This document shows, in pieces, positions 8,638 to 42,978 of a stretch of DNA of 64,000 nt (position 1 is the first letter of the stretch; each line of letters starts with the position of its first letter). The notes under the pieces are model-generated. The model was not told the origin of the DNA. It did not search any database and worked only from the letters and a program-made list of their open reading frames with translations. Both the position numbers and the translations under genes were made by a program. The DNA comes from Butyrivibrio proteoclasticus (lineage in GTDB: Bacteria; Bacillota; Clostridia; Lachnospirales; Lachnospiraceae): assembly GCF_900115735.1 (NCBI RefSeq), contig NZ_FOXO01000019.1, positions 1 through 64,000 of the forward strand, read 5' to 3'.

Positions 8638-10137
8638 ATGGAACAACGGATGCCATTGAACAAAATATCGTTCGCTAAAACTTTTTTTCAAGATGAAGTG
8701 AGAGAAGGCTTTCTCGTCATGACTATGATGAAAAGGTATTGGGCTGCTCAGTTAAAGGTATTGTCAGAAATCGTAAAAGTTTGTGAAAATCATGATATAA
8801 GGTGGTATGTGGATTGTGGAACGCTGATAGGTGCTGTCAGACATGGAGGATATGTTCCGTGGGATGATGACCTTGATATCTGCATGCTTAGAAGCGACTG
8901 GGTAAGATTTTTTGACGTGGCAAAAGAGGAACTTCCAAAAGAATATAAAGTTTTATCTTTGAAGACTGAACCTGAATATAGGGGCGAGATTGGAAGAATA
9001 GTGAGCAGTCATGCAATAGATTATTCTGAGGAGCATATGGCGGAATTCTACGGATGCCCGTATACGGTTGGGATAGACATTTTTCCGCTCGATAACATTT
9101 TTGATGATCCGGTGCTGGAAAAGGAAAGAGTTATAAGGGCTAAAAGAGCTATCGAGGCATACAAAAATTCGACGGATGAAAAGAAATCCAATAAACTTTT
9201 GCTGGAAATTGAAAAAACATATATGGAATGTCCGGACGAACAGGCATCTAAAGTAGCACTTATGCCTTTTTATATTCCTCAAGGAAACCATATTTATGAT
9301 AGAGATTTTTTTTCAAAATGGGTAGATGTTCCATTTGAGAATACTTTTGTAAGGGTACCTTCAGCGTACAATAAAGTTCTCGAAATTGAGTATGGAGACT
9401 ACCTCAGGGTGGTAAAAGGAGGAGGAGAGCATGGCTATCCTGTCTATGCTGAACAGGAAAATATACTTAGAAATGCTATCAAAAGAAATCCTTACAGATA
9501 CACTTTTAATCCACAAGACTTTGAGTTGGCACTTAACAGATGCAGAGAAAAAAAGTTTGTAGAAGATAATGAAAAACGGCATAAAAAGGCAGTGTTTCTC
9601 CCCTGCAGAGCTATGTGGTGGAATTCTATGGAGGGGCTTTGGAAGAAGTTTAATGACAATCCGAATTATGAAGTTCATGTGATGCCTATAGCATATTATG
9701 ATTGTGATTATAACGGGAATGTGCTTGATAAACATGAGGAAACAATGAATTTTCCAAAGTATCTGAACATAGAGAGTGTTTATAGATATGATTTTGAGAA
9801 AGAAAAACCGGATATTATAGTTATTCAAGTGCCTTATGACGAATGTAATAGTGCTATGACAGTACATGAATATTTCTATTCGAGAAATTTACTGCAATTT
9901 ACAAAGGAACTTGTTTATATTCCTTATTTTGAAACGGATGATCCTGTAAGTTTTGAAGATAAGATAAGTTTTGCCATTTCTACACTGATTGAGCAGCCAG
10001 CTGTGATATACGCAGATAAAATAGTTCTAAAAACCAGGAAAGTGAGGGATTTATATCTAAAGAAACTTGATGATCTTTCATATGGGAAAAATAAAGACTA
10101 TTGGCATCAAAAAATAATACTTGAAGAAGATTTTTAA
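8638..10137 (+). CDS. LicD - glycerophosphotransferase-like fusion protein
   Basis: The 499-residue protein has an N-terminal LicD domain: GTLIGAVRHGGYVPWDDDLD at about residues 61-80 and YTVGIDIFPLD near 145. A C-terminal domain (about 325-499) starts KKAVFLPCRAMWW and contains PDIIVIQVP, YFYSRNLLQF and LVYIPYF, matching the first half of the separate protein at 5363. The second half of that protein is absent. The ATG at 8638 has AAGGT just upstream; an in-frame ATG at 8626 has none. It runs divergently from 7305. I infer a phospho-group transferase acting on glycans. Confidence 0.8.
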   Translation: MEQRMPLNKISFAKTFFQDEVREGFLVMTMMKRYWAAQLKVLSEIVKVCENHDIRWYVDCGTLIGAVRHGGYVPWDDDLDICMLRSDWVRFFDVAKEELPKEYKVLSLKTEPEYRGEIGRIVSSHAIDYSEEHMAEFYGCPYTVGIDIFPLDNIFDDPVLEKERVIRAKRAIEAYKNSTDEKKSNKLLLEIEKTYMECPDEQASKVALMPFYIPQGNHIYDRDFFSKWVDVPFENTFVRVPSAYNKVLEIEYGDYLRVVKGGGEHGYPVYAEQENILRNAIKRNPYRYTFNPQDFELALNRCREKKFVEDNEKRHKKAVFLPCRAMWWNSMEGLWKKFNDNPNYEVHVMPIAYYDCDYNGNVLDKHEETMNFPKYLNIESVYRYDFEKEKPDIIVIQVPYDECNSAMTVHEYFYSRNLLQFTKELVYIPYFETDDPVSFEDKISFAISTLIEQPAVIYADKIVLKTRKVRDLYLKKLDDLSYGKNKDYWHQKIILEEDF

Positions 10138-10201
10138 ATTATGTGATAAAATAGACGTATATACGTTTATTAAATCACTGAATCAACCAGAGGAATCATA
10201 C

Positions 10202-10879
10202 ATGGAAAATATTTTTACGCTATCAGCATCTATGATGTGCGCAGACTTTGGAAATATTGAAAAAGAAGTGCGAGAGCTTGAGAAAGCTGGAATAGATGCT
10301 TTTCATATTGATATCATGGATGGACGATATGTTAACAATTTTGCAATGTCGCTCTATGATATGAACTGTATTGCCCAGCTAACCAATAGGCCTTTGGAAG
10401 TTCACCTTATGATTGAACATCCGCGAAATAACATAGATCTTTTTTTAAAAGGTTTGCGTCGCGGTGATACTGTATATATTCATCCTGAAGCTGAATATCA
10501 TCCATCCACTACTTTGCAGAAAATTATAGATGCAGGACTGCATCCGGGGATAGCGATTAATCCCGGCACAAGTGTTGAGACTGTAAAAGAAATGCTGCGA
10601 CTTGCGGATCATGTTCTTGTAATGGCGGTTAATCCAGGAAATGCAAGCCAGATGTTTTTACCATATGTCGGAGAGAAGGTTGATCAACTTATTTCACTCA
10701 AGGAAAAAATGGGATTTAAGCTGTTTTGGGATGGTGCCTGCAGTGCAGAGAGGATAAAAACATACTATCCTAAGGGAATTGATGGCTTTGTTTTAGGAAC
10801 AACGCTTTTGTTTGGAAAAGAAGTTGCGTATAGCGAGATTATCAGTGCTATACGTAAGTTAAATTTTGATTATTATTAA
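10202..10879 (+). CDS. Ribulose-phosphate 3-epimerase family protein
   Basis: A TIM-barrel epimerase of 225 residues, the usual size for Rpe. Visible motifs are LSASMMCADFGNIEKEV, FHIDIMDG (catalytic Asp and metal His), LEVHLMIEHP and LVMAVNPG, with the C-terminal phosphate loop DGFVLGTTLLF. The reaction would interconvert ribulose-5-phosphate and xylulose-5-phosphate or a related ketose phosphate. I chose the ATG at 10202, preceded by GAGG, because the family starts there; the open frame extends to 10121 but overlaps the preceding gene. Its place between two LicD fusions suggests it supplies a pentose or pentitol precursor rather than serving central metabolism. Confidence 0.8.
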   Translation: MENIFTLSASMMCADFGNIEKEVRELEKAGIDAFHIDIMDGRYVNNFAMSLYDMNCIAQLTNRPLEVHLMIEHPRNNIDLFLKGLRRGDTVYIHPEAEYHPSTTLQKIIDAGLHPGIAINPGTSVETVKEMLRLADHVLVMAVNPGNASQMFLPYVGEKVDQLISLKEKMGFKLFWDGACSAERIKTYYPKGIDGFVLGTTLLFGKEVAYSEIISAIRKLNFDYY

Positions 10880-10888
10880 TAAATGCTG

Positions 10889-10930
10889 ACAGTGCTCGTT
10901 TTAGTAAAGATCGGGCACTGTTTTTATTTT
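10889..10930 (+). terminator. Rho-independent terminator after the epimerase gene
   Basis: ACAGTGCTCG (10889-10898) pairs with CGGGCACTGT (10912-10921), one G-T pair, followed by TTTTATTTTT. The stop codon of the opposite-strand LicD fusion lies in the loop. Confidence 0.75.
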
Positions 10931-12385
10931 TGCATTCCAATATTCTTTGGTGTCATCGCCTGAAAAATCTATTAGTTTTTTGGCATACTGTAACCTGATA
11001 TTATCATATTGGACCCATACTTCATCAGCATGAAAAAGAGCCGGCATGGTAACGTAAAACTTTAGCACAATGTTTTCTACTTCATCTCTATCAGAAAAGT
11101 CTGCTGTTTGGGCGATTGGTATGTAAACAATCCTTGGTGCGAATTTTTGTAGATTGCCGGAATAGAAATACTCAGGTACAGTAAGAAGTGGATTCATATT
11201 ATCATATGGATTTTGTATGTAGATGATATCGGGAGAAAGCTTTCCAATATCAGTATCTGCCCAACTAAGCAAATTAAGATTTTGAGGATATTCATATATT
11301 TTTGAGGCAGCGACAATTTCTTGGTCTGTCATGGTTATTCTGCCGAAATAATCTTTGAAGAGAAGGGGGAGTGGCATTACAAAAACATCTGCATCATTGG
11401 ATGCAGATTCTTTTTCATATGTATTTTTAAAGCCTTTCCATTCTTTTGGCCCAATTGGAAGAAAAAGAATGGTTCTGCGTATTTTGCGGGATGTAGGTTT
11501 ATTAGTGCAACAGTTTCGTTTTAGTAAGTCCTTAGAAAATGTGAAGGCAGGAAGCTTTTTGCCGGTGGCTTCTTCAAATGTAATTCGCTGATTATCAAAA
11601 GACGGATAACCGTGCCCGGCGACACCTTTGTGAATCTCATTGTAATTGCCGTATCGTTTTGATAAAAGCTCATGATAATGTGAAGGAACCGGGATGGTTG
11701 TATCTTCAAAGGGAATTCTTATGGCTGGCTCGTAACAGGCTTTAGGTTCTCCCTGCTGTCCTTTTAAGATCCAGGGAAAAATCTGTCCGATAGTATTAGA
11801 GTCATTTTTGTTGACACGTCCCATTATCTGCTCAGCTTTTTTGTAAAGCTCTATTGCTTTTTTCCTTTCGCCTTTATTTATGTGATTCTCGGCGATTACA
11901 AGGATGTGCATTATTTCTTGGCAACGTTCCTTTTCTTTTTGATAGTCATCATATAGATAATCTTTGACGAAAATATCTACGCTGGCAAGCCATGGGAAAT
12001 TGTAATGTCTGTTAAGAAAATCTTCTGTAAATCCGTAGTGAGCATTGTTTACGATCCTGGACAAGAAAAGCCAGTGATCTTCATGTCTCTCATAGTCGTG
12101 AATTACATATTCAGAAGGCAACTCATCATCTGCGACAGCTCGAAATTTAATATAGTCATCTCTCTTCATGCATATATCAATATCATCATCCCAGGGAATG
12201 ATTCCGCCATGTCTAACAGCGCCAAGGAGTGTTCCCCAGTCTGCGTAGTAATTGATATCGTGAGTTGTGCAGATTCGGTCGATTTCAGCTAAAACGTCAA
12301 GACAACAAGCCCAGGACTGTTTAACAGCCGTAGGAATGTAAAAACCGTTTCTTACTTCGTCTCTGAAAAAATCTATGCTGTGCAT
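10901..12385 (-). CDS. LicD - glycerophosphotransferase-like fusion protein
   Basis: The 494-residue protein has the same plan as the fusion at 8638: an N-terminal LicD domain with WGTLLGAVRHGGIIPWDDDI near residue 60 and LASVDIFVKDY near 145, then a C-terminal domain from about 325 with TILFLPIGPKEWKGF, PDIIYIQNPY, EYFYSGNLQKF and IVYIPIA. It lacks the terminal nucleotide-binding half present in the standalone protein at 5363. The ATG at 12385 is supported by AAAGGATAAC; the frame is open back to a TTG at 12418 without such support. The two fusions differ strongly in sequence, so they probably differ in acceptor or cargo. Confidence 0.8.
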   Translation of the reverse strand: MHSIDFFRDEVRNGFYIPTAVKQSWACCLDVLAEIDRICTTHDINYYADWGTLLGAVRHGGIIPWDDDIDICMKRDDYIKFRAVADDELPSEYVIHDYERHEDHWLFLSRIVNNAHYGFTEDFLNRHYNFPWLASVDIFVKDYLYDDYQKEKERCQEIMHILVIAENHINKGERKKAIELYKKAEQIMGRVNKNDSNTIGQIFPWILKGQQGEPKACYEPAIRIPFEDTTIPVPSHYHELLSKRYGNYNEIHKGVAGHGYPSFDNQRITFEEATGKKLPAFTFSKDLLKRNCCTNKPTSRKIRRTILFLPIGPKEWKGFKNTYEKESASNDADVFVMPLPLLFKDYFGRITMTDQEIVAASKIYEYPQNLNLLSWADTDIGKLSPDIIYIQNPYDNMNPLLTVPEYFYSGNLQKFAPRIVYIPIAQTADFSDRDEVENIVLKFYVTMPALFHADEVWVQYDNIRLQYAKKLIDFSGDDTKEYWNAKIKTVPDLY

Positions 12386-12504
12386 GAGTGTTATCCTTTG
12401 AATTTGATGAAGTGACAATATTGTGTTGTTACACTATTATTATTTTATCAGAATATAGTATGGTATAAAACGGCAATTTATCAACATTATTAGCTGTGAT
12501 AAAA

Positions 12505-12533
12505 TTGACATATAGGATGATTGGTGCAAAATA
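12505..12533 (+). promoter_or_regulatory. Possible promoter for the gene at 12556
   Basis: A consensus -35 TTGACA (12505-12510) lies 17 bp before AAAATA, a weak -10. The gene starts 23 bp further on behind GAGGCGAG. Confidence 0.35.
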
Positions 12534-12555
12534 GGTTAAAAAGAATGAGGCGAGT

Positions 12556-13704
12556 ATGAATATTCTTCTTTATGATTTTCTGAATTCTTATATTCAATAT
12601 GATCTGGTATTTTTTCTGCAAAAAATGGGTCACAAGTGTAATAATGTGTCCTATCGTAAGAGCGTTGATAAATATAGCGATGATACATTTACAGAGCGCA
12701 TGGAAGCAGATCTGTCATCCGGGAAATATGATCTTGTTCTTACAACAAATTTTTGGCCTGTGGTTTCAAAGGTGTGTAAAAAGCACGATATTAAATATGT
12801 TTCATGGTTTTTTGACAGTCCTCCAAATCTTCCAACAGCGGAGTGTATGGAATACTCATGCAATAAGATATATTTTTTTTCAAGGGCGGATTATGAGGAA
12901 TATAGGGCAAAAGGACTCGATAATGTTTTTTATCTTCCCCTTGCGGTTAATACCGGGAGACTTCAAGGGATTATTACCGATAAAAAGAAATATGAAAGCG
13001 AGATTTCATTTGTGGGAAAACTCTATGAATCTATGCTGCCGGCACTAATGTCTCATATGACTGATTATCAGAAAGGCTATATAGATGGACTTGTAAAGGT
13101 ACAGCTTCAGCTGTATGGAACATATATTGTGGATAATGTTGTAACAGAAGAATTTACGGAAGGAGTCAGAAAACGATACAAAGAGCTTTCAGAAAAAGCC
13201 ATTCAGGTGACTAGAAAAGAATTATCCTGGGCGGTAGCCTCTTATATTACGCATCTTGAGAGGATGACACTTTTAAGCGTCCTATCCGGAAAACATCAGG
13301 TGAAGCTGTATACTTATGAACTTTCTGATGATGAAAAGAGAATGCTTCCCAATGTAGATTTTTGTGGACCGGTTGATTATCTTATTGATATGCCACAAGT
13401 TTTTAGCGCAAGCAAGGTGAATCTGTGCCCGGTTCTAAAGGCAAACAGATCAGGAATACCTTTAAGGGCACTTGATATAATGGGGTGCGGTGGGTTTCTG
13501 TTGGCAGGCTATCAACCGGAACTATACGAATATTTTGTCTATGGAAAGGAATGTGTGATGTATTCGTCTTTGGAGGACGCTGTTGCAAAGGCTGATTTTT
13601 ATCTTTCACACGAAGAAGAAAGAAAGAAAATAGCAGGCGCAGGGCTTGAAAAGATCATACGTGATTTTAACTATGAAGACAGAATAAAGGTACTGCTCCA
13701 GTGA
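12556..13704 (+). CDS. CgeB-like glycosyltransferase (GT-B fold)
   Basis: The 382-residue protein starts MNILLYDFLNSYIQYDLV behind GAGGCGAG. It shares with the gene at 1825 'PVVSKVCKK', 'SWFFDSPPN', 'YLPLAVNTGRL', 'FVGKLYES', the 'YQKGYIDGLVKVQLQLYG' helix and the C-terminal 'PLRALDIMGCGGFLLAGYQPEL'. The two are clearly paralogues. It is probably a cytoplasmic glycosyltransferase. It is followed after 108 bp by an AAA-ATPase gene that is not functionally related. Confidence 0.82.
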   Translation: MNILLYDFLNSYIQYDLVFFLQKMGHKCNNVSYRKSVDKYSDDTFTERMEADLSSGKYDLVLTTNFWPVVSKVCKKHDIKYVSWFFDSPPNLPTAECMEYSCNKIYFFSRADYEEYRAKGLDNVFYLPLAVNTGRLQGIITDKKKYESEISFVGKLYESMLPALMSHMTDYQKGYIDGLVKVQLQLYGTYIVDNVVTEEFTEGVRKRYKELSEKAIQVTRKELSWAVASYITHLERMTLLSVLSGKHQVKLYTYELSDDEKRMLPNVDFCGPVDYLIDMPQVFSASKVNLCPVLKANRSGIPLRALDIMGCGGFLLAGYQPELYEYFVYGKECVMYSSLEDAVAKADFYLSHEEERKKIAGAGLEKIIRDFNYEDRIKVLLQ

Positions 13705-13812
13705 AGGGGGGAACGCTGAAGTAAAAGAATAAAAACGTTTAGTTGGATTGTGCTTGAAAGAAAGATGGAAGAGAGTATAAAATTAACTTTAATAGACTGC
13801 TAGGGGATAATT

Positions 13813-15390
13813 ATGGGAATATATCTGAATCCGGGTAATGAAAATTTTAGAAGAGCGACAGTTGCCGATATATACGTTGATAAGACTATGCTCATCTCTG
13901 AGATGAATCGTTTTATAGATAAAGCAAATAATTATGTATGTGTGTCCAGACCAAGACGTTTTGGCAAGACGATTACCGGTAATATGCTTGCGGCATATTA
14001 TTCAAAGGGATGCGATTCGAGAGCTCTTTTTTCAAAATATAAAATTGCCGGTACAGAGGATTTTGATAATAAACTTAATCAGTTCAATGTTATTCAAATA
14101 GATGTTAACAGTGAATATCAGAATACTAATGATAAGGACAATCTGGTAAGGATTCTTTCTGAAAAGATTATTGATGAGCTAAAGCAGGAATACAAGAGTG
14201 TAAAGATCAAAGATGAATATACTCTTGGAGAGGCTATCCTTGCCATATATGCGGCTACACAGGATACTTTTATCCTGCTTATAGATGAATATGATGTTCT
14301 GGTGCGTGAAAAAGTATCTAAAAAGCTGTTTGATGATTATTTAAGTTTTCTAAACGGACTCTTTAAAAGTAATACATTGCGCCCGGCTATATCTCTTGCT
14401 TATATTACCGGAATTTTTCCTGTTGTAAGGGATAAAATCCAGTCTAGGCTTAATAATTTCAGAGAATATACATTTATAAATTCGTCTAATTTAACAGAGT
14501 ATATAGGTTTTACATCTAGTGAGGTAAAAAAGTTATGCGATATATACCAGGTTGATTATGAGGAATGTAAAGTTTGGTATGATGGTTATAAGCAGCGTGA
14601 CATAGAAATATATAATCCGGAATCAGTTGTTAAATGTCTTGAAGATAAACAGTTTGAAGGTTATTGGAGTAAGACATCTTCTTACCAGGTAATTTCAGAC
14701 AGGTTAAGCCAAAACTTCCAAGGCACAAAGGACGATGTCATAAAAATGTTAGCTGGAGAAAAGGTTGATGTTAATGTAACAGGATTCCTGAATACTTTGG
14801 ATGCATTTGTTACTAAAGATGACGTGTTCACATATCTGATACATTTAGGATACCTGGCATATGACGTTGATGAAAAAATGTGCAGTATACCTAATAGAGA
14901 AGTCAGACAGGAATGGCTGAATGCGCTTGCAAGTCTTGATGATTATACTATTACCAATCAGATAATCAATAATTCGAAGCAGCTATTGCAAAAAACACTC
15001 GAGGAAGATGCAAAAGCAGTTGAGGATGCTCTTGATGTAAGTCATATACATGTGACCTCCAACAGAAGCTATAATAACGAAGATGCTTTACAGAGTGCGA
15101 TATATCTTGCCTACATTTATGCACTTAACAAATACACTGTTATAAGAGAAATGACAGCAGGAAAAGGCTTTGCAGATGTGGTGTTTATTCCAAGAGACAC
15201 CGATGATCCGGTTTTGATAATAGAGCTAAAGAGGAACAAAACAGCAGAAAGTGCACTTGATCAGATAAAAGATAAGAGATATTTTGAAAGCTTGGAACTT
15301 TATAAAGGAAAACTGTTATTTGTTGGCATTAACTATGATGAGACTAGTAAAAAACATAGTTGCGTGATTGAGCAGTTCATTAAGGAATAA
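13813..15390 (+). CDS. DUF1703-type AAA-ATPase with PD-(D/E)XK nuclease end
   Basis: A 525-residue protein of the AAA-ATPase_like/PDDEXK_9 family common in Lachnospiraceae. The N-terminal part starts MGIYLNPGNENF..., then YVDKT and the Walker A variant SRPRRFGKT near residue 50; the Walker B region is LLIDEYDVLV near 160. The C-terminal nuclease part has GKGFADVVF (catalytic Asp) and LIIELKRNK (E-x-K). The cellular role is unknown; mobile-element-associated or defence roles are often suspected. The gene at 24522 is a close paralogue. Ribosome site AGGGGAT. Confidence 0.88.
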   Translation: MGIYLNPGNENFRRATVADIYVDKTMLISEMNRFIDKANNYVCVSRPRRFGKTITGNMLAAYYSKGCDSRALFSKYKIAGTEDFDNKLNQFNVIQIDVNSEYQNTNDKDNLVRILSEKIIDELKQEYKSVKIKDEYTLGEAILAIYAATQDTFILLIDEYDVLVREKVSKKLFDDYLSFLNGLFKSNTLRPAISLAYITGIFPVVRDKIQSRLNNFREYTFINSSNLTEYIGFTSSEVKKLCDIYQVDYEECKVWYDGYKQRDIEIYNPESVVKCLEDKQFEGYWSKTSSYQVISDRLSQNFQGTKDDVIKMLAGEKVDVNVTGFLNTLDAFVTKDDVFTYLIHLGYLAYDVDEKMCSIPNREVRQEWLNALASLDDYTITNQIINNSKQLLQKTLEEDAKAVEDALDVSHIHVTSNRSYNNEDALQSAIYLAYIYALNKYTVIREMTAGKGFADVVFIPRDTDDPVLIIELKRNKTAESALDQIKDKRYFESLELYKGKLLFVGINYDETSKKHSCVIEQFIKE

Positions 15391-35637: not shown

Positions 35638-35684
35638 ATTAACTGATTAAAATAGTTTATGGTCTGGTTATGTGATGGTTGAAT

Positions 35685-36305
35685 ATGAATGAATTGAAGT
35701 TTAAATCACAAGATAAAATACTAATTGTAGCTCCCCATCCGGATGATGAAATTATTGGTTGCGGTGGCTTGATATTAAGTTATCCAAAACAATGCGATGT
35801 TTTGTTATTAACGGATGGAAGTAAGGGACATAGGCTGTGGAGCCCATCTCGAACGGCTAGAATAAGAAAAAGAGAATTTGAGTCAGTTATGAAAAAATGC
35901 AACGTTTCTCATTATGTTTCACTAGGATTCAATGATCGAACGTTAAGCAGAATCGTTAATTGTTATCATGGACAGAATTTAGATAAGTATGATTATGTGT
36001 TTGTTCCAAATAAATGTGAGACACATACTGATCATAGGGCATCTTTTTATCAGTTAGTATTAAACAGATTTATTAGTTGTAGTAGATATAAAGTGTTTCA
36101 GTACGAGGTTTGGTCTCCGCTTTCTAACCCAACTCATATTCTTGATATTACAAGTTGTATGAATAATAAATTGGAAGTATTGGAGTTGTATCAAAGTCAA
36201 ATTAATGAACTAAACTACATTGGAGCAGTAAAGGGGCTTAATCAGTATAGGGGGTTATTGAATCATTTTTCGTTTGCGGAGTGTTATCGCGAAGGGGTTC
36301 TATAA
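35685..36305 (+). CDS. PIG-L family deacetylase
   Basis: The 206-residue protein carries the zinc motif VAPHPDDEIIGCGG near residue 20 (H, D, D, E) and the third ligand in ETHTDHRA near 110. PIG-L/LmbE enzymes remove N-acetyl groups from GlcNAc-containing small molecules or nucleotide sugars. Its stop and the next gene's start overlap (TAATG). In this cluster it may free an amine on a sugar for later modification. Confidence 0.88.
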   Translation: MNELKFKSQDKILIVAPHPDDEIIGCGGLILSYPKQCDVLLLTDGSKGHRLWSPSRTARIRKREFESVMKKCNVSHYVSLGFNDRTLSRIVNCYHGQNLDKYDYVFVPNKCETHTDHRASFYQLVLNRFISCSRYKVFQYEVWSPLSNPTHILDITSCMNNKLEVLELYQSQINELNYIGAVKGLNQYRGLLNHFSFAECYREGVL

Positions 36306-38179
36306 TGAAAAAAAAAGACATACAAAATTATGATTTGTTAATAAAAGAGCTTTTGGAGAGAACCGGTATATATTTTGTAGATGCTGATATTGAATGTATC
36401 AATGATTTTTTAAAAAATATTGTTGATATATTGACTGAATTGTTTAGATGTATATGCAAAGCCGAAGTAGTTATTAGGGGTGGTGGCGAAGAAACTAAAT
36501 TCATATTGGAAACTCTTTACAGTGTAGATAAGTCTGTTTTGTCCAATATAACAGGTGTAATTGATAATTATTCGAATAAAAAAGAAATGTACGGTATTCC
36601 AGTATTTGATATAAACGGTGTCTCGTTAGATGGCATTAATAAATGCATAATATGCAGTTTTAATTATAGATATGAGATGCGATGTGAGCTGGAAAGCAAA
36701 TATCCTAGTATTGAGATAATAGATATTTATGATGTGTTGGCAAGCGAAGGATTCTTTTTTGACTCATCATTTTTTAATAGAATTGACCCAAGATGTTTTT
36801 ACTTGAAAATAAACTATTTTCGGAAACTATCTGAAAGCCAAGAGGGCGAAAACCCTTTATTTCTTAAAAAACTAATTTGCGCTTATATAAGCATTAGAGA
36901 TTTTTATAATGCAATTAAGTATATAGATAAGTATAATAGATTGTTTTGCGATGGATTATTATTGTTTCGCAATGAGTTACAAGAATTGATGAATAGGTTG
37001 AAGGAGGATATTCTCAATATTGAAGGGGAACATATAGTTTGGCTATGGTTGGATCAACTAAGGTATTGTGATTTAGACCATATGGAGTATACGAATTCAT
37101 TAAAAAATGAGTGTGTATCATTTGAAAAGTGCTACACCGAGAATTTGCAAACGTCAACAACTTTTAAAATGATGTTTTCGGGAAAGGATGTATTGGATGG
37201 AAAAGCGTATGAAATAGATACTATTAATTCTGATAATAGTCCCTTATACAATTACTTAAAGCAAAAAGGATATGACTTTAGATATATTGGGTGGGGGAAG
37301 AATAACATCTATTTTGATGGGATAAGTTCATATTCTCTAGAAAAAGATAATTGTATAATCTCACTGAATATCTGGAAAATGTTAATGGATATGCTTCGGA
37401 ATAATACAGGAAAATCCTTGTATCTATTACATAGTTTTGAGTCTCATGAACATCACTATTGCGGAATGATGACACAATCATTATATAATGTGTGGGATTC
37501 ATCATTTGAAGCATTTTGTGATCGTTATTATGAATGCATTCAATATATAGATGCTCAACTTATGTTTTATATGCCAATAATTAAGAAGAGGTTTTCTTTT
37601 ATTCTTATGAGTGACCACGGTCAGGAATTGGAAAACGTTTATAAGTTCGATGAGAATGTAAATCCATTAAAGGAAAAGTACGTTATTGGTAGATGGAGTG
37701 AAAATTCATTGCATACTGTAATGATTGTGAAAAGTAAGTATTTCGGCCATAGAAAGTTTATGAGTTTATTTTCACTGGTTGATTTTCTACAGATAGTTAG
37801 AAGTATTATAGATGAAAAATGGATGGTTGAAGAAAAAGAATACATAAAAATACAGTCTATGCCGTTCTATAACGAGGGAGGACTGAAGAAAATAAAAGAA
37901 GCGAAAGATTACAAATTTGCAATGCTTGTGAAAGGGATATTAAAAGGAACGGGAAAATATTTAAAATATGCTTCCGGTGAAGAGGAATACTATGTTAATG
38001 GCGATGACTACTCAAATGAAATAAATGAGCAAAAGTATAAGGAAGAGATAGATTGCTGTAGAAAACTATGTGGTGAAATCGATTATACGATTTTTGATGA
38101 GGATAAGTATTGCAACGCGTTTCGATTGCTAAAGGAATATGAAAAATTACGAGTTTACAATGAAAAGGGTGGTCAATAG
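36305..38179 (+). CDS. Alkaline-phosphatase-fold hydrolase/transferase with N-terminal Rossmann module
   Basis: A 624-residue protein. About residues 50-150 hold the shared module (VVIRGGGEETKFILETLY ... IDNYSNKKEMYGIPVFD). From about 245 it has the sulfatase/phosphotransferase fold: IVWLWLDQLRYCDLDHMEYT with the first metal Asp, then ENLQTSTTFKMMFSG where a Thr could be the nucleophile, HSFESHEHHYCG, and MSDHGQE near 445. Unlike EptA or LtaS it has no membrane helices. It lies one base from the PIG-L gene and directly before the CysC/phosphonate genes, so handling a phosphonate ester is plausible. ATG 36305 has GAAGGGG upstream. Confidence 0.7.
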   Translation: MKKKDIQNYDLLIKELLERTGIYFVDADIECINDFLKNIVDILTELFRCICKAEVVIRGGGEETKFILETLYSVDKSVLSNITGVIDNYSNKKEMYGIPVFDINGVSLDGINKCIICSFNYRYEMRCELESKYPSIEIIDIYDVLASEGFFFDSSFFNRIDPRCFYLKINYFRKLSESQEGENPLFLKKLICAYISIRDFYNAIKYIDKYNRLFCDGLLLFRNELQELMNRLKEDILNIEGEHIVWLWLDQLRYCDLDHMEYTNSLKNECVSFEKCYTENLQTSTTFKMMFSGKDVLDGKAYEIDTINSDNSPLYNYLKQKGYDFRYIGWGKNNIYFDGISSYSLEKDNCIISLNIWKMLMDMLRNNTGKSLYLLHSFESHEHHYCGMMTQSLYNVWDSSFEAFCDRYYECIQYIDAQLMFYMPIIKKRFSFILMSDHGQELENVYKFDENVNPLKEKYVIGRWSENSLHTVMIVKSKYFGHRKFMSLFSLVDFLQIVRSIIDEKWMVEEKEYIKIQSMPFYNEGGLKKIKEAKDYKFAMLVKGILKGTGKYLKYASGEEEYYVNGDDYSNEINEQKYKEEIDCCRKLCGEIDYTIFDEDKYCNAFRLLKEYEKLRVYNEKGGQ

Positions 38180-38701
38180 ATGAAAAAGCCTTTTCTTTTG
38201 TATTTGATAGGCACCAGTGGAAGCGGAAAGACGACCATTGGAACTAGATTAAATGAATATTTTAAGACTAATGATGACAGAAAAGTCCAATTCATTGATG
38301 GTGATGACATCAGAGCTAGGTTTGGTGGCATGTTCGGGTATACCAAGGAAGAACGTATGAAATGCAATCAGGCTACAAGGACGGTTGCGGAATATCTTCT
38401 TGAAAATGGTATTTCGGTAATCCTAACTGGTGTTGTAGCTTATGAGGAGATGAGGAATCAAATCAGGCAACAGTTTGGTGATAAATATATTCAATGTTAT
38501 GTCAAATGTTCCTTAGAGGAATGCATGCGACGTGATCCCAAAGGATACTATAAGAAGTTTAAAGAAGGCCACATGAGCAATTTGAACGGAGCTAATGATA
38601 CATATGAAACTCCGTTACAAAATGAAATAGTAGTTGATACTGAAGAATTATCAGTGGAAGAATCAATGAATCATATACTGAATTATCTGTCAAAGTGGTG
38701 A
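38180..38701 (+). CDS. Adenylylsulfate kinase-like (CysC-type) nucleotide kinase
   Basis: A 173-residue P-loop kinase: LIGTSGSGKTTIGTRL (Walker A, residues 9-20), FIDGDDIRARF near 40, CNQATRTVAEYLLENG and VKCSLEECMRRDPKGYYKK, all hallmarks of APS kinase. No sulfate adenylyltransferase or sulfotransferase gene is present. The start immediately follows the previous stop, and its own stop lies inside the region leading to the phosphonate enzyme. In Campylobacter a CysC homologue (Cj1415) phosphorylates a CDP-phosphoramidate. By analogy this kinase may 3'-phosphorylate a CMP-phosphonate; that is inference. Confidence 0.85.
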   Translation: MKKPFLLYLIGTSGSGKTTIGTRLNEYFKTNDDRKVQFIDGDDIRARFGGMFGYTKEERMKCNQATRTVAEYLLENGISVILTGVVAYEEMRNQIRQQFGDKYIQCYVKCSLEECMRRDPKGYYKKFKEGHMSNLNGANDTYETPLQNEIVVDTEELSVEESMNHILNYLSKW

Positions 38702-38706
38702 AAAGT

Positions 38707-40725
38707 ATGAAGGCACTTATACTTAACTCTGGCATGGGTACTCGGATGGGAGTACTAACATCAGAACAACCTAAATGCATGACAGAGGTTTCTAATCACG
38801 AAACCATATTGTCGAGACAATTGAATACATTATCTCAGGTTGGGATAGATGATGTAATTATCACAACAGGATATTATGACGGCGTATTGGTTAATTATGT
38901 CCAGAGCCTTGAACTCCCGTTGAATATCACATTTGTAAAGAATGAGAAATACGATAGTACCAATTACATTTATTCAATTTATTGTGCCAGGGACTATTTG
39001 GATGATGACATTATTCTAATGCACGGTGATATGGTATTTGAGAATTCCGTGTTGAATGATGTTGTGGCCTCAAATGCTTCTTGTATGGCAGTAAGCAGTT
39101 CGGTTGCTCTGCCTGAGAAGGACTTTAAGGCTGTACTTAAAGATGGACGTATCAAGGAAATAGGTATTGAGTTTTTCAGCGAAGCTGTGGCTGCCCAACC
39201 GTTATATAAGATTAATAAAGCTGATTGGAAGGTGTGGCTGGATAGGATTACTGATTACATCGAATCCGGAGAAGAAAATAAGCAGAAATGCTATGCCGAG
39301 AATGCATTTAATGAGGTAAGCAAAGAGTGTATCATCACACCGCTTGATGTACAAAACCGTCTTTGCAATGAGGTTGATACTACTGAAGATTTAGCTGTGG
39401 TATCAAGTCGTCTTCATGAAATTGAAAATAGAACAGTCTATATGTGCTTCAGCACAGATATGTTACATGGTGGTCATATCAGTATTATCCGAAAAGCGCA
39501 AAAATTGGGTAAATTAATCATCGGTGTGATGTCTGATGAAGCAGTAGCAAGTTATAAACGATATCCTTTGATTCCTTATGAGGATCGTAAGGCAATGTTT
39601 AGTTCTATAGCTGGAGTATGGAAAGTTGTAAAGCAGGACAGCTTGAGCTACAAGACAAATATAGAGAAATATCAGCCGGATTATGTTGTACATGGGGATG
39701 ATTGGCAGTGTGGATTTCAGAAGCCTGTACGAGATGAAGTAGTATCAGAATTGGCTGTTTATGGTGGGCGATTAGTTGAATTCCCATATAGTTCAGAGCA
39801 GAAATATAAGGATTTAGAAGCAAGAACGAAGACGGAACTATCTATGCCACATGTCAGAAGGGGCAGATTAAAGAGGAGTATGGAGCTACAAGGGCTTATC
39901 ACAGCTATGGAAGCTCATGATGGACTTACTGGATTGATAGTGGAAAATACCATTGTTCATGACAAGGGTGAAGCTCATCAGTTTGATGCTATGTGGGTTA
40001 GCTCTTTATGCGATTCTACGGCTAAAGGGAAACCGGACATAGAGCTTGTAGACATGACAAGTAGATTCCGCACTATTGAAGATTTAATGGAGGTAACGAC
40101 AAAACCTATTATCTTTGATGGTGATACTGGCGGAAGGAGAGAACACTTCACTTATACAGTAAGAAGCCTTGAGCGTCTTGGAGTTTCGATGGTAATCATC
40201 GAAGATAAAACCGGTCTAAAAAAGAATAGCTTATTTGGAACGGAAGTTGAGCAAACTCAGGATAGTATAGAGAACTTTTCGGCTAAAATCAGGGCAGGAA
40301 AAGCTGCTCAACAAACGAAAGAGTTTATGATCTGTGCCAGGATTGAGAGCTTGATACTTGAAAAAGGCCTTGATGATGCGCTGAATCGAGCCAGGGCGTA
40401 TGTAGAGGCTGGAGCGGATGCAATAATGATCCACAGCAGAAAGAAAGAGCCTGATGAGATTTTTGAATTCATTGATCAATTCAGAAGCGTAGATAAGAGC
40501 ACGTTTCTTGTTGTTGTTCCGACAAGTTTTAACACGGTAACGGAAGAAGAATTCAAGGATAGAGGCGTAAATGTGGTCATTTATGCAAATCAGCTGATGA
40601 GAGCTACGGTTCCGGCGATTCAGAAGGCGGCGGAAACAGTTCTTATAAACCATCGCGCAAAAGAATGTGATGATTTCCTAATGCCTTTTTCTGAGATTAT
40701 ACGGCTTATCCCTGAGGAGGTATAA
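38707..40725 (+). CDS. Three-domain protein: MobA-like nucleotidyltransferase, HxGH cytidylyltransferase, PEP mutase
   Basis: 672 residues in three parts. Residues 1-240: sugar-nucleotidyltransferase fold, LNSGMGTRMGVLTSEQPKCM. Residues about 243-375: cytidylyltransferase with HGGH at 254-257 and GVMSDEAVASYKR. Residues about 385-672: PEP mutase with DGDTGG (471-476) and EDKTGLKKNS (499-508), the motif separating mutases from lyases. PEP mutase converts PEP to phosphonopyruvate, the entry to C-P compounds. The first domain resembles PntC, which makes CMP-aminoethylphosphonate. Having two different nucleotidyltransferase folds is unusual. GGTG lies 6 bp before ATG 38707. Confidence 0.9.
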   Translation: MKALILNSGMGTRMGVLTSEQPKCMTEVSNHETILSRQLNTLSQVGIDDVIITTGYYDGVLVNYVQSLELPLNITFVKNEKYDSTNYIYSIYCARDYLDDDIILMHGDMVFENSVLNDVVASNASCMAVSSSVALPEKDFKAVLKDGRIKEIGIEFFSEAVAAQPLYKINKADWKVWLDRITDYIESGEENKQKCYAENAFNEVSKECIITPLDVQNRLCNEVDTTEDLAVVSSRLHEIENRTVYMCFSTDMLHGGHISIIRKAQKLGKLIIGVMSDEAVASYKRYPLIPYEDRKAMFSSIAGVWKVVKQDSLSYKTNIEKYQPDYVVHGDDWQCGFQKPVRDEVVSELAVYGGRLVEFPYSSEQKYKDLEARTKTELSMPHVRRGRLKRSMELQGLITAMEAHDGLTGLIVENTIVHDKGEAHQFDAMWVSSLCDSTAKGKPDIELVDMTSRFRTIEDLMEVTTKPIIFDGDTGGRREHFTYTVRSLERLGVSMVIIEDKTGLKKNSLFGTEVEQTQDSIENFSAKIRAGKAAQQTKEFMICARIESLILEKGLDDALNRARAYVEAGADAIMIHSRKKEPDEIFEFIDQFRSVDKSTFLVVVPTSFNTVTEEEFKDRGVNVVIYANQLMRATVPAIQKAAETVLINHRAKECDDFLMPFSEIIRLIPEEV

Positions 40726-40727
40726 AA

Positions 40728-41846
40728 CTGGAACAGAAGATCTTACATGCCACAGAAGATTATCAAGAGTTGGATAAGTACGTTAAAGAGAAGAATATAC
40801 AATCGATATTTCTTGTTTGTGGCGATTCATTACAATATTTGAAAATCAACGATTATATTAGTGATCTATCAAAAAGAATTAAAATAGTTAAATTTTCAGA
40901 TTTTAAGCCTAACCCGTTATATGAGTCTGTTGTTGAAGGAGTGAGAAAATACAGAGAATCAGGATGTGATTTTCTTATGGCTGTTGGCGGTGGGAGTGCC
41001 ATTGATGTAGCAAAATGTATAAAGCTTTATGCTAAGCTCCCAGGAGATGGGAAAAATGGTTCTTGGTTGCAGAGTGACGGAGAAGTGAACAACACAGAAC
41101 TTCTTGTGATACCTACAACAGCGGGAACAGGTTCGGAAGCAACACGATATGCGGTTGTGTATTATGGTGGCAATAAGCAATCGATTACATCAGATACTAT
41201 CATTCCTGATGCGGTTTTATTTGATCCGAGAGTTCTGGATTCATTACCTGACTATCAAAAGAAGAGCACAGTAATGGATGCTCTTTGCCATGCAGTAGAG
41301 TCATTTTGGTCTGTTAACAGTACTAATGATAGCAAGGAATATTCGAGAACGGCTATAGAATTGATTATTGAAAATATCGATGAGTTTGTAGTTGGTGATA
41401 ACAGCAAGAATTCAATAATGCAGAAAGCAGCATTTATAGCTGGAAAAGCAATCAACATAACTCAAACTACGGCTGGTCATGCAATGTGTTATGGATTAAC
41501 AAGCAAATATGGGATTAGTCATGGTCATGCAGCTGCACTTTGTGTGCGGGAGTTATGGCCTTGGATGCTAAAGGCATCTGAAGAAGCGTGCATTGATAAG
41601 CGTGGTAATAAATACCTTAAGGAAACGTTTATAGAACTCGCTGAAGCATTTGGAGAAAATGATCTAATGGATGGGTGCATGAAATTCCAGAATATCGTTG
41701 ATAGATTAGAACTGATGCATCTGGTTGGAAATAAAGAAGATATAGAAGAACTTAGCAGGAATGTAAATCCTGTGCGGCTTTCAAATAATCCGGTAAAACT
41801 TAATGAGGATGATATAACGAATCTCTATAAGGAGATTGTGAGGTAG
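40728..41846 (+). CDS. Iron-containing alcohol dehydrogenase, likely phosphonoacetaldehyde reductase; CTG start
   Basis: The protein has GGGSAIDVAK (NAD), IPTTAGTGSEAT, and metal histidines in DALCHAVESFWS and HAMCYGLTS...SHGHAAAL, the group III Fe-ADH family that includes PhpC-type phosphonoacetaldehyde reductases. The ORF has no ATG near its start: perfect AGGAGG at 40715-40720 lies 7 bp before CTG 40728, from which the frame reads EQKILHATEDYQELD, expected N-terminal sequence. The next TTG (40770) lacks a ribosome site and would remove 14 residues. I therefore place the start at CTG. Product would be 2-hydroxyethylphosphonate. Confidence 0.8.
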   Translation: MEQKILHATEDYQELDKYVKEKNIQSIFLVCGDSLQYLKINDYISDLSKRIKIVKFSDFKPNPLYESVVEGVRKYRESGCDFLMAVGGGSAIDVAKCIKLYAKLPGDGKNGSWLQSDGEVNNTELLVIPTTAGTGSEATRYAVVYYGGNKQSITSDTIIPDAVLFDPRVLDSLPDYQKKSTVMDALCHAVESFWSVNSTNDSKEYSRTAIELIIENIDEFVVGDNSKNSIMQKAAFIAGKAINITQTTAGHAMCYGLTSKYGISHGHAAALCVRELWPWMLKASEEACIDKRGNKYLKETFIELAEAFGENDLMDGCMKFQNIVDRLELMHLVGNKEDIEELSRNVNPVRLSNNPVKLNEDDITNLYKEIVR

Positions 41847-41856
41847 CATTTAAGGA

Positions 41857-42978
41857 ATGAAAGTAGAAGATTTTGTAAAGATTATAAATTCTGACTTTTA
41901 TACGGGAGTGCCTGATAGCCAGTTAAGACCTCTCTGTGACTATCTTTATAACACATACGGCATTGAAGGTAAGCACCATATTATTGCAGCAAATGAAGGA
42001 AATGCTGTGGGCATAGCTGCAGGATATCATCTTGCAACGGGGAAAGTGCCTGTTGTGTATATGCAGAATAGTGGTGAAGGAAATGCAATCAACCCGATGG
42101 TAAGCCTTCTAAACGAGAAGGTTTACGGCATCCCAGTTGTGTTTGTCATAGGTTGGCGCGGAGAACCGGGTGTTCATGATGAACCTCAACATATCTATCA
42201 GGGAGAAGTAACACTAAGATTGCTTGATGATATGAAGGTTAAGTCATTTGTGATTCATGCGGACACATCAGATTATGAAGTGGCTGATACAATGAGGAAA
42301 TTTAAGCATATTCTCTTATCTGGTAACTCAGTGGCTTTTGTGATTGGAAAAGGTGCTTTGACAGATGCTCCAAAGGTGAGATTTAGCAATGAGAACAGCA
42401 TGATTCGAGAGGAGATTATTCGACATATTATTGCTGTTACTGATGGAGATCCGATTATTAGTACTACAGGTAAAGCGTCGCGTGAATTATATGAAATTCG
42501 TGAGATAAATAAACACTCTCATAAGTATGACTTTTTAACAGTAGGCTCTATGGGGCATAGTAGTTCTATTGCTTTAGGTGTTGCATTAAATAAGACCAAC
42601 GAAAGAATTTGGTGCATTGATGGTGATGGTGCAGTGCTTATGCACCTAGGGGCAATGGCGGTTATTGGTGATAATAGACCAAGAAACATGATTCACATAG
42701 TTATTAATAATGGTGCACATGAATCTGTAGGTGGGATGCCTACAGTTGCAAGAAATATTGACTTGATAAGTATAGCAAAAGCCTGTGGGTATCCTTATGC
42801 TGTTTCTATAAACAACTATGAAAAACTAGATAGGGAACTTGAAAAAGCAAAGACTGGTGATGAACTTAGGTTCTTGGAGGTTAGAAGTTCTATCGAATCA
42901 AGAAAAGAATTAGGTAGACCAAAAACAATGCCATTAGAAAATAAGAAAAGGTTTATGGAATATTTAGTATCATTGTGA
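41857..42978 (+). CDS. Phosphonopyruvate decarboxylase
   Basis: A 373-residue thiamine-diphosphate enzyme, the usual size of Ppd/AepY. It starts MKVEDFVKIINSDFYTGVPD, has AANEGNAVGIAAGYHLATG (catalytic Glu), YMQNSGEGNAINP, and the ThDP-Mg motif GDGAVLMHLGAMAVIG ... INNGAHES near residues 250-285. It removes CO2 from phosphonopyruvate to give phosphonoacetaldehyde, pulling the unfavourable mutase reaction. It lies 10 bp after the dehydrogenase, with AAGGA as ribosome site. Confidence 0.92.
   Translation: MKVEDFVKIINSDFYTGVPDSQLRPLCDYLYNTYGIEGKHHIIAANEGNAVGIAAGYHLATGKVPVVYMQNSGEGNAINPMVSLLNEKVYGIPVVFVIGWRGEPGVHDEPQHIYQGEVTLRLLDDMKVKSFVIHADTSDYEVADTMRKFKHILLSGNSVAFVIGKGALTDAPKVRFSNENSMIREEIIRHIIAVTDGDPIISTTGKASRELYEIREINKHSHKYDFLTVGSMGHSSSIALGVALNKTNERIWCIDGDGAVLMHLGAMAVIGDNRPRNMIHIVINNGAHESVGGMPTVARNIDLISIAKACGYPYAVSINNYEKLDRELEKAKTGDELRFLEVRSSIESRKELGRPKTMPLENKKRFMEYLVSL

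What the first reader, a model, noticed from the sequence alone, without database searches (positions are those of the whole stretch)
38180..42978. Phosphonate pathway built into a surface-glycan cluster, with a three-domain PEP mutase
The genes give PEP mutase (EDKTGLKKNS), phosphonopyruvate decarboxylase and an Fe-alcohol dehydrogenase in order, the known route PEP to phosphonopyruvate to phosphonoacetaldehyde to 2-hydroxyethylphosphonate. The mutase carries two nucleotidyltransferase domains of different folds (MobA-like and HxGH). PntC-type fusions that make CMP-phosphonates are known; carrying both folds on one chain appears unusual. LicD-type transferases in the left part could move such an activated phosphonate to sugars.
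Basis: partly seen in the sequence, partly recalled or inferred. Interest (0 to 1): 0.76.

Follow-up and report, generated by a model that had tools for sequence, protein, structure and literature searches.

The report
Phosphonate coat genes with activating kinase

Summary
The fusion is not new: Rice et al. 2019 counted 42 among 1485 Ppm proteins, and all 80 loci of a capped scan of species genomes carry it. Both nucleotidyltransferase signatures are invariant, so both domains are probably active; the likely product is CMP-2-hydroxyethylphosphonate. The new part lies just upstream: an APS-kinase-fold gene touching ppm. No ATP sulfurylase was found in this genome, the kinase lacks a Phe that other APS kinases keep, and its nearest relative (53%) sits in a cassette resembling Campylobacter's phosphoramidate pathway, which makes CDP-phosphoramidate 3'-phosphate. 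Such kinases touch ppm in 4 of 80 other loci; with the window's they are not one lineage. I propose a PAPS-like donor, 3'-phospho-CMP-phosphonate. Against or open: 75 of 80 loci show no such kinase nearby; no transferase is proven; the whole genome was not searched for the other phosphoramidate genes. Verdict: new variant of a known kind.

The parts
38180..38701 (+). APS-kinase-fold gene, proposed CMP-phosphonate 3'-kinase, related to kinases of phosphoramidate-like cassettes
   Evidence: PF01583 119 bits; below the TIGR00455 equivalog cut-off, 129.5 vs 138.7; 53% identical to the kinase of L182; pocket residues changed; only APS_kinase match in the genome
38695..40725 (+). three-domain PEP mutase (MobA/LicC-like NTase + HxGH cytidylyltransferase + PEP mutase); likely start at 38707
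38707..39399 (+). NTase domain (LicC/PntC fold family), aa 5-235
   Evidence: best PDB hit LicC 1jyk E 4.5e-13, PntC 6pd1 E 2.3e-7; signature residues invariant in 79 of 79 or 81 of 81 rows
39424..39795 (+). Fom1-like HxGH cytidylyltransferase domain, aa 244-367
   Evidence: 5x3d E 4.6e-36; H258 and H261 invariant in 81 of 81
39868..40719 (+). PEP mutase domain, aa 392-675, EDKTGLKKNS
   Evidence: TIGR02320 over cut-off
40770..41846 (+). iron-containing alcohol dehydrogenase, probable phosphonoacetaldehyde reductase
   Evidence: PF00465 and PF25137; a gene of the triple-fusion operon of Segatella copri is annotated phosphonoacetaldehyde reductase
41857..42978 (+). phosphonopyruvate decarboxylase
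   Evidence: TIGR03297 466.7 bits
36281..38179 (+). alkaline-phosphatase-superfamily (Sulfatase) protein, candidate phosphonyl transferase or hydrolase; likely start 36305
   Evidence: PF00884 35 bits, cut-off 25; relatives beside Ppm in L139 (two copies) and L036; D250, T283 and D437-H438-G439 invariant in 4 of 4
35679..36305 (+). PIG-L-type deacetylase, same strand, upstream
   Evidence: PF02585 65 bits
43037..44878 (+). carbamoyltransferase, downstream glycan gene
   Evidence: PF02543 and PF16861; close relative also in L183
6343..7287 (-). LicD-family transferase (distant, left part)
   Evidence: PF04991 125.5 bits
8626..10137 (+). LicD-family transferase (distant, left part)
   Evidence: PF04991 117.3 bits
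10901..12418 (-). LicD-family transferase (distant, left part)
   Evidence: PF04991 103.5 bits

Best explanation
The operon makes 2-hydroxyethylphosphonate (HEP) from PEP by PEP mutase, phosphonopyruvate decarboxylase and Fe-ADH, and activates it with CTP on the three-domain enzyme to CMP-HEP. The adjoining APS-kinase-fold enzyme then phosphorylates the ribose 3'-OH of the CMP-phosphonate, giving a PAPS-like donor (3'-phospho-CMP-HEP) from which a transferase moves the phosphonyl group to a surface glycan. Shown by sequence: the enzyme families, the operon, the intact signature residues, the kinase's kinship, and no detectable ATP sulfurylase. Inferred: the substrates, the 3'-phosphorylation and the transferase (here perhaps the alkaline-phosphatase-superfamily protein upstream; elsewhere LicD or sulfotransferase-fold proteins).
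For: Families over curated cut-offs. HEP rather than AEP: Fe-ADH in 74 of 80 and Ppd in 73 of 80 triple-fusion loci, AEP-transaminase-like gene in 4 of 80, whereas 7 of the 8 two-domain CyT-PepM loci that lack an Fe-ADH match (L030, L033-L037, L039; not L032) carry one. Kinase: the only APS_kinase match in a 99.85% complete genome without PF01747 (control rings in 5 of 14 genomes) and without PF01507 (control rings in 14 of 14). Nearest relative in the compared set is the kinase of L182, 89 of 168 identical, next best 67 of 162. L182 holds a PRK05849-type PPDK-like kinase (over cut-off), a GATase-like hydrolase whose best NCBIfam model is gamma-glutamyl-CDP-amidate hydrolase and a LicC-like NTase; L184 holds the same set by Pfam, plus a methyltransferase. 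In C. [quoted passage not shown] Similar kinases touch the triple fusion in L125, L139, L143, L151, 4 of 80 loci. F of FTG and P of ISP are kept in 35 of 35 other APS kinases and in 0 of 9 of this set, while R(DGDxxR), R(DR) and K(KGxY) are kept in 9 of 9; Phe492 and Phe576 sandwich the APS adenine in M. tuberculosis CysC (PMC4373884, passages; matching Phe576 to FTG is my inference). In one search (35 of the 80 genomes) the 6 genomes with a long CysNC-like frame all have a PF01507 match of 187-200 bits; the 4 genomes whose kinase touches the fusion have none above 78 bits. One clade of the five ppm-adjacent kinases is rejected, p-AU 1.2e-6.
Against: 75 of 80 triple-fusion loci show no APS-kinase match in the stretch fetched, and 25 of 35 whole genomes have no full-length APS kinase, so the kinase is optional at best. 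L073 has a canonical CysD and CysNC-like pair next to the triple fusion, so ordinary sulfation genes can lie there too. The weak PF01507 matches in G398, G400 and G401 (33.9, 34.5, 77.9 bits) are over that family's cut-off of 22.5. The kinase of L184 passes the NCBIfam model NF004041, named adenylyl-sulfate kinase (170.4 vs 127). No Cj1415 sequence was at hand, so kinship to it is by context only, and the hydrolase of L182 is below its equivalog cut-off (110 vs 250). The whole genome was not searched for the Gln kinase and hydrolase, so a phosphoramidate role is not excluded. The tool warns of long-branch joins in the kinase tree; the nine as one group have 96/69 support only. No transferase is proven. 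Why two nucleotidyltransferase domains are needed is unexplained.
Confidence: 0.55

Rival explanations
1. Ordinary phosphonyl tailoring: CMP-HEP is the final donor and is used directly by LicD, CDP-glycerol-type or other transferases; the APS-kinase-like gene is a passenger of glycan-cluster shuffling.
For: 75 of 80 triple-fusion loci show no APS-kinase match in the stretch fetched and 25 of 35 whole genomes no full-length one; 28 of 80 loci carry LicD; in Segatella copri a CDP-glycerol glycerophosphotransferase gene follows the operon; G403 and G404, with a sulfotransferase-like gene next to the triple fusion, have no APS kinase.
Against: The kinase touches ppm in this window and in 4 of 80 other loci, not all of one kinase lineage; the window has no LicD in the operon.
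Confidence: 0.25
2. The kinase serves a Campylobacter-type phosphoramidate pathway whose other genes lie elsewhere in the genome, and its place beside ppm is accidental.
Against: No Gln-kinase or hydrolase homologue (tblastn E 1e-5) in the window, in the rest of its contig, or in 20 kb each of contigs C26 and C30, and none at E 1e-8 in the 80 triple-fusion loci, 4 of which have the kinase touching ppm.
Confidence: 0.13
3. It is an ordinary APS kinase supplying PAPS for glycan sulfation.
For: PF01583 over cut-off; L073 shows CysD and a CysNC-like gene beside a triple fusion.
Against: No PF01747 and no PF01507 match in the genome; pocket residues lost; below the TIGR00455 cut-off.
Confidence: 0.03

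Closest known systems
Ppm fused to PF12804 and PF01467 (Rice et al. 2019, PMC6697681)
   Same: same three domains; the paper counts 42 of 1485 Ppm proteins with both
   Different: in the parts of the paper that I read no triple fusion is characterised and no kinase beside it is mentioned
Fom1 of fosfomycin biosynthesis (CyTase-PepM)
   Same: HxGH domain (5x3d, E 4.6e-36) fused in front of PEP mutase; makes CMP-HEP (as stated in PMC6697681)
   Different: extra N-terminal NTase domain; glycan genes around it instead of an antibiotic cluster
PntC phosphonate cytidylyltransferases (LicC-like)
   Same: NTP_transf_3 fold, invariant signature residues
   Different: weak similarity (6pd1 E 2.3e-7); AEP-transaminase-like gene in only 4 of 80 triple-fusion loci
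Campylobacter jejuni O-methyl phosphoramidate pathway (Cj1415-Cj1418)
   Same: an unusual phosphorus group for a capsule, carried as CDP-phosphoramidate 3'-phosphate (PMC11800397, passages); LicC-like NTase plus APS-kinase-fold enzyme in the cassettes found here
   Different: here a C-P bond from PEP mutase instead of a P-N bond from glutamine
CysC/CysNC APS kinases
   Same: fold, P-loop, R(DGDxxR), R(DR), K(KGxY)
   Different: FTG Phe and ISP Pro lost, no ATP sulfurylase found in the genome

Membership tests
PEP mutase (Ppm) | EDKxxxxxNS motif and TIGR02320 over cut-off | tested here: met
Phosphonopyruvate decarboxylase | TIGR03297 over cut-off | tested here: met
   466.7 vs 312.5 bits
Ppm triple fusion PF12804+PF01467+PF13714 | all three Pfam domains over gathering score on one chain | tested here: met
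Fom1-type cytidylyltransferase | HxGH motif and similarity to Fom1 CyTase 5x3d | tested here: met
Fom1-type cytidylyltransferase | CTP + HEP to CMP-HEP activity | not testable with these tools
   needs enzyme assay
PntC (AEP cytidylyltransferase) | LicC-like NTase fold with signature residues | tested here: met
PntC (AEP cytidylyltransferase) | AEP as substrate | not testable with these tools
   only context: AEP-transaminase-like gene in 4 of 80 loci
Fe-ADH PsrA (TIGR03405) | TIGR03405 over cut-off | tested here: not met
   143 vs 423.7 bits; the Fe-ADH family PF00465 itself is met
APS kinase (CysC) | TIGR00455 equivalog cut-off | tested here: not met
   129.5 vs 138.7 bits
APS kinase (CysC) | Phe of FTG (inferred to be the adenine-stacking Phe576 position) | tested here: not met
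   Leu in its place (role from passages)
APS kinase (CysC) | ATP sulfurylase in the same genome | tested here: not met
Cytidine diphosphoramidate kinase (Cj1415 type) | closest relatives lie in phosphoramidate-like cassettes | tested here: met
Cytidine diphosphoramidate kinase (Cj1415 type) | direct similarity to Cj1415 | not tested
   no sequence at hand, none recalled
Cytidine diphosphoramidate kinase (Cj1415 type) | own locus holds Gln kinase and gamma-glutamyl-CDP-amidate hydrolase | tested here: not met
   no match in the window or the rest of its contig

The most novel reading that the evidence does not exclude
Some bacteria activate phosphonates as cells activate sulfate: a CMP-phosphonate made on the Ppm fusion is 3'-phosphorylated by an APS-kinase relative, and the phosphonyl group is then moved by sulfotransferase-fold or alkaline-phosphatase-superfamily enzymes. 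Kinases of two lineages, each close to kinases of phosphoramidate-like cassettes, are paired with ppm, so one donor chemistry (3'-phospho-CMP-X) would serve P-N and C-P decorations alike.
Probability: 0.45. Interest if true: 0.78.

Novelty: new variant of a known kind. Interest (0 to 1): 0.6.

Why it matters
Rice et al. 2019 call the phosphonyl tailoring steps after Ppm enigmatic (abstract) and show cytidylyl activation as one of them. If the kinase acts on CMP-phosphonates, it gives an assayable next step, links phosphonate tailoring to capsule phosphoramidate and sulfation chemistry, and shows that some genes named adenylyl-sulfate kinase are misnamed.

Tried and rejected
AlphaFold of the ~680-aa protein upstream of the kinase in L125, L143 and L151 (alignment of 3) failed: mean pLDDT 40.5. 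Its sulfotransferase likeness rests on my reading of motifs (recalled) and on non-significant profile hits (sulfotransferases at E 0.19-0.25, behind a hypothetical protein at 0.14); I do not claim it. Absence of LicD where the kinase is present was tested: 0 of 4 vs 28 of 76, Fisher p 0.29, not significant. The kinase with the second-best match in the first search, L043 of G038 (41%), keeps the canonical motifs and lies beside a gene that I read as ATP sulfurylase (my reading of the translation, no family search). The sulfotransferase-like relative in G299 has no Ppm match within the 18 kb fetched. Degeneration of one of the two nucleotidyltransferase domains was considered and rejected: signature residues are invariant in both. 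For the C26 sulfotransferase-like protein the Foldseek TM-scores are low (0.23-0.46 to the query), and a Ser that I recall as a 3'-phosphate ligand after RxPxD is missing in 4 of 4 relatives by my reading of the alignment, which counts against its using a 3'-phosphorylated donor. The relatives of the window's alkaline-phosphatase-superfamily protein are below the PF00884 cut-off in L139 (21.9 and 14.5 vs 25) and unmatched in L036.

Literature: none of the 63 papers held all three terms phosphonate, adenylylsulfate kinase and phosphoenolpyruvate mutase; two searches listed no paper that joins sulfotransferase or APS kinase with phosphonate biosynthesis. Only open-licence papers are held, so this is weak. 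PMC8743553 (passages) describes ordinary sulfate-activation genes in a C. jejuni serotype and was not used. Rows dropped or not fetched: L059 (wrong ORF taken) was removed before the kinase tree; of the 70 matches besides the window's, 29 were fetched; the comparison set of 35 kinases is 28 of these plus 7 CysNC-like frames, holds one gene twice (L073C and L162) and one identical pair (L047, L048). CysNC is my name for frames of 612-680 aa that end in an APS-kinase domain; the CysN part was not tested by a family search. Genome checks covered 35 of the 80 genomes, those covered 12.
Full report
What is there. The span holds four genes on the plus strand: an APS-kinase-family gene (38180-38701), the three-domain PEP mutase (38695-40725), an Fe-ADH (40770-41846) and phosphonopyruvate decarboxylase (41857-42978). 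A PIG-L deacetylase and an alkaline-phosphatase-superfamily protein precede them; a carbamoyltransferase and further glycan genes follow.

The fusion is known. Rice et al. 2019 (PMC6697681; [quoted passage not shown] A scan of 84,980 species genomes returned 80 loci, its cap; all 80 match the triple protein at 66-74% identity, 78 from near its start and 2 (L112, L147) from residue 38 or 53 because the contig ends there, and in all 80 the three domains lie in one frame. The record titles name Lachnospiraceae, Ruminococcus, Bacteroidales, Prevotella and others, mostly from gut and rumen. One more lies on a Segatella copri plasmid. In 398 sampled genomes of the phylum, 14 matched at E 1e-60: 2 with the full fusion (this genome included), 11 with only the two-domain CyT-PepM form, 1 with a fragment. 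In L027, L028 and L029 the NTase is a separate gene just before CyT-PepM (in L029 cut by the contig end), so the fusion probably joined neighbours (inference).

Both nucleotidyltransferase signatures are intact. Among the window and 80 homologues, G13, G15, R17, P26 and K27 of the NTase are invariant in 79 of 79 rows with a residue there, D112, E226 and D228 in 81 of 81, and the HxGH histidines in 81 of 81. The HxGH domain resembles the Fom1 cytidylyltransferase (5x3d, E 4.6e-36); the NTase resembles LicC (E 4.5e-13) and more weakly PntC (E 2.3e-7). Why one chain needs both is not explained by my data.

HEP rather than AEP. Among 80 triple-fusion loci an Fe-ADH is found in 74, the decarboxylase in 73, both in 70, an AEP-transaminase-like gene in 4 (one of them at only E 1.7e-9). 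Of 12 two-domain loci, 4 have an Fe-ADH match (L027, L028, L029, L038); of the other 8, 7 have the transaminase, among them the second phosphonate cluster of this same genome on contig C26. Gene order is ppm-ADH-ppd in 55, ppm-ppd-ADH in 14 and ppd-ppm-ADH in 1 of the 70.

The kinase. It is the only APS_kinase match in the genome, in which neither PF01747 (control rings in 5 of 14 genomes) nor PF01507 (control rings in 14 of 14) was found. It is 53% identical to a kinase in L182; the next best of the set compared is 41%. L182 holds a PRK05849-type PPDK-like kinase, a GATase whose best NCBIfam model is gamma-glutamyl-CDP-amidate hydrolase (110 bits, cut-off 250), and a LicC-like NTase; L184 holds the same set by Pfam, plus a methyltransferase. 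L183 looks alike by its translations and an NTase match but was not scanned in full. In C. [quoted passage not shown] that Cj1415 is the kinase of this set is my recollection, in line with the title cited there on a cytidine diphosphoramidate kinase. Against this reading, the kinase of L184 passes the NCBIfam model NF004041, named adenylyl-sulfate kinase (170.4 vs 127); the window's does not (112.3).

Recurrence. In L125, L143 and L151 a kinase of this type ends at or overlaps the start of the triple fusion; in L139 it follows it. That is 4 of 80 loci, three of them close kin (78-84% identical kinases). A fifth, L073, has a canonical CysNC-like gene with CysD and an inositol-monophosphatase-family gene that I read as CysQ. 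The remaining 75 show no APS-kinase match in the stretch fetched. In 35 of the 80 genomes searched whole, 10 have a full-length APS kinase (over 80 bits), the five above included by choice. The tree joins the window kinase to L182 (support 100/99) and the other four ppm-adjacent kinases to L183, L184 and L185 (100/100); holding all five ppm-adjacent kinases as one clade is rejected (p-AU 1.2e-6). I take this as at least two pairings with ppm. The nine non-canonical kinases fall on one side of a branch at 96/69 only, and the tool warns that long branches meet.

Pocket. In 35 other APS kinases Phe of FTG and Pro of ISP are invariant; in the nine they are absent (0 of 9). The Asn of ENIRR is kept in 34 of 35 and in 1 of 9. 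R(DGDxxR), R(DR) and K(KGxY) are kept in 9 of 9. The nine were named by their neighbours, not by these residues. In M. tuberculosis CysC the APS adenine lies between Phe492 and Phe576 (PMC4373884, passages); I infer that the FTG Phe is Phe576. The change fits a different base, such as cytosine (inference). In one search six genomes have a CysNC-like frame, and all six have a PF01507 match of 187-200 bits; in the four genomes whose kinase touches the fusion, PF01507 is absent (G399) or weak but over the cut-off of 22.5 (best 33.9, 34.5 and 77.9 bits in G398, G400 and G401), and PF01747 is absent in 12 of 12 genomes.

Transferase. None is proven. In this operon the alkaline-phosphatase-superfamily protein (36305-38179) has relatives beside Ppm in L139 (with kinase) and L036 (no kinase match in the 19.9 kb), with D250, T283 and DHG invariant in 4 of 4; the relatives do not reach the PF00884 cut-off. 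Directly before the second Ppm of this genome lies a protein that matches Sulfotransfer_3 weakly (19.8-21.2 bits, cut-off 27); its model (pLDDT 72.1) has sulfotransferases in the first 49 Foldseek rows (best E 1.9e-4, TM-scores to the query 0.23-0.46) and VIA-align Z 14.4, rmsd 4.6, 229 aligned for the best. Relatives lie directly before the triple fusion in L082 and L094, in whose genomes neither APS kinase nor PF01507 nor PF01747 was found. These may be phosphonyl transferases, but in those two genomes they cannot depend on such a kinase, which counts against a simple kinase-sulfotransferase pairing. A LicD match is present in 28 of 80 loci.

Limits. Gln-kinase and hydrolase homologues were sought only in the window, the rest of its contig and 20 kb each of C26 and C30, and not found. 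Many of the 80 loci are from metagenome assemblies and several are cut by contig ends. No activity was tested.

Noticed in passing
L033 (G000:C26:221000-240900), 8749-14205: The same genome has a second phosphonate cluster, of AEP type (CyT-PepM, class-V aminotransferase, PntC-like NTase, decarboxylase), with a sulfotransferase-fold protein directly in front, although no ATP sulfurylase was found in the genome.
   Followed up: partly
L182, L183, L184: Campylobacter-like phosphoramidate cassettes in genomes that also carry the triple fusion; L182 and L183 lie about 25 kb from it on the same contigs, as judged by equal contig lengths.
   Followed up: partly
L073:5026-9973: Inositol-monophosphatase-family, CysD and CysNC-like genes directly in front of the triple fusion: sulfate activation inside a phosphonate glycan cluster.
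   Followed up: no
L125:161-2152, L143:5816-7933, L151:6863-9496, L185:132-2252: A ~680-aa protein family without a Pfam match over cut-off; in these four loci, all where it was found, it directly precedes a non-canonical kinase, and a distant relative (20%) does so in L184.
   Followed up: partly
window:31079-31867: NusG-domain protein ahead of the glycan genes, possibly a dedicated antiterminator of the long operon.
   Followed up: no
window:29123-30740: Two transposase genes (DDE_Tnp_1_2 and IS66) between the LicD region and the phosphonate operon.
   Followed up: no
L139:4935-7289: 785-aa protein with a C-terminal CTP_transf_like domain between two alkaline-phosphatase-superfamily genes near the triple fusion.
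   Followed up: no
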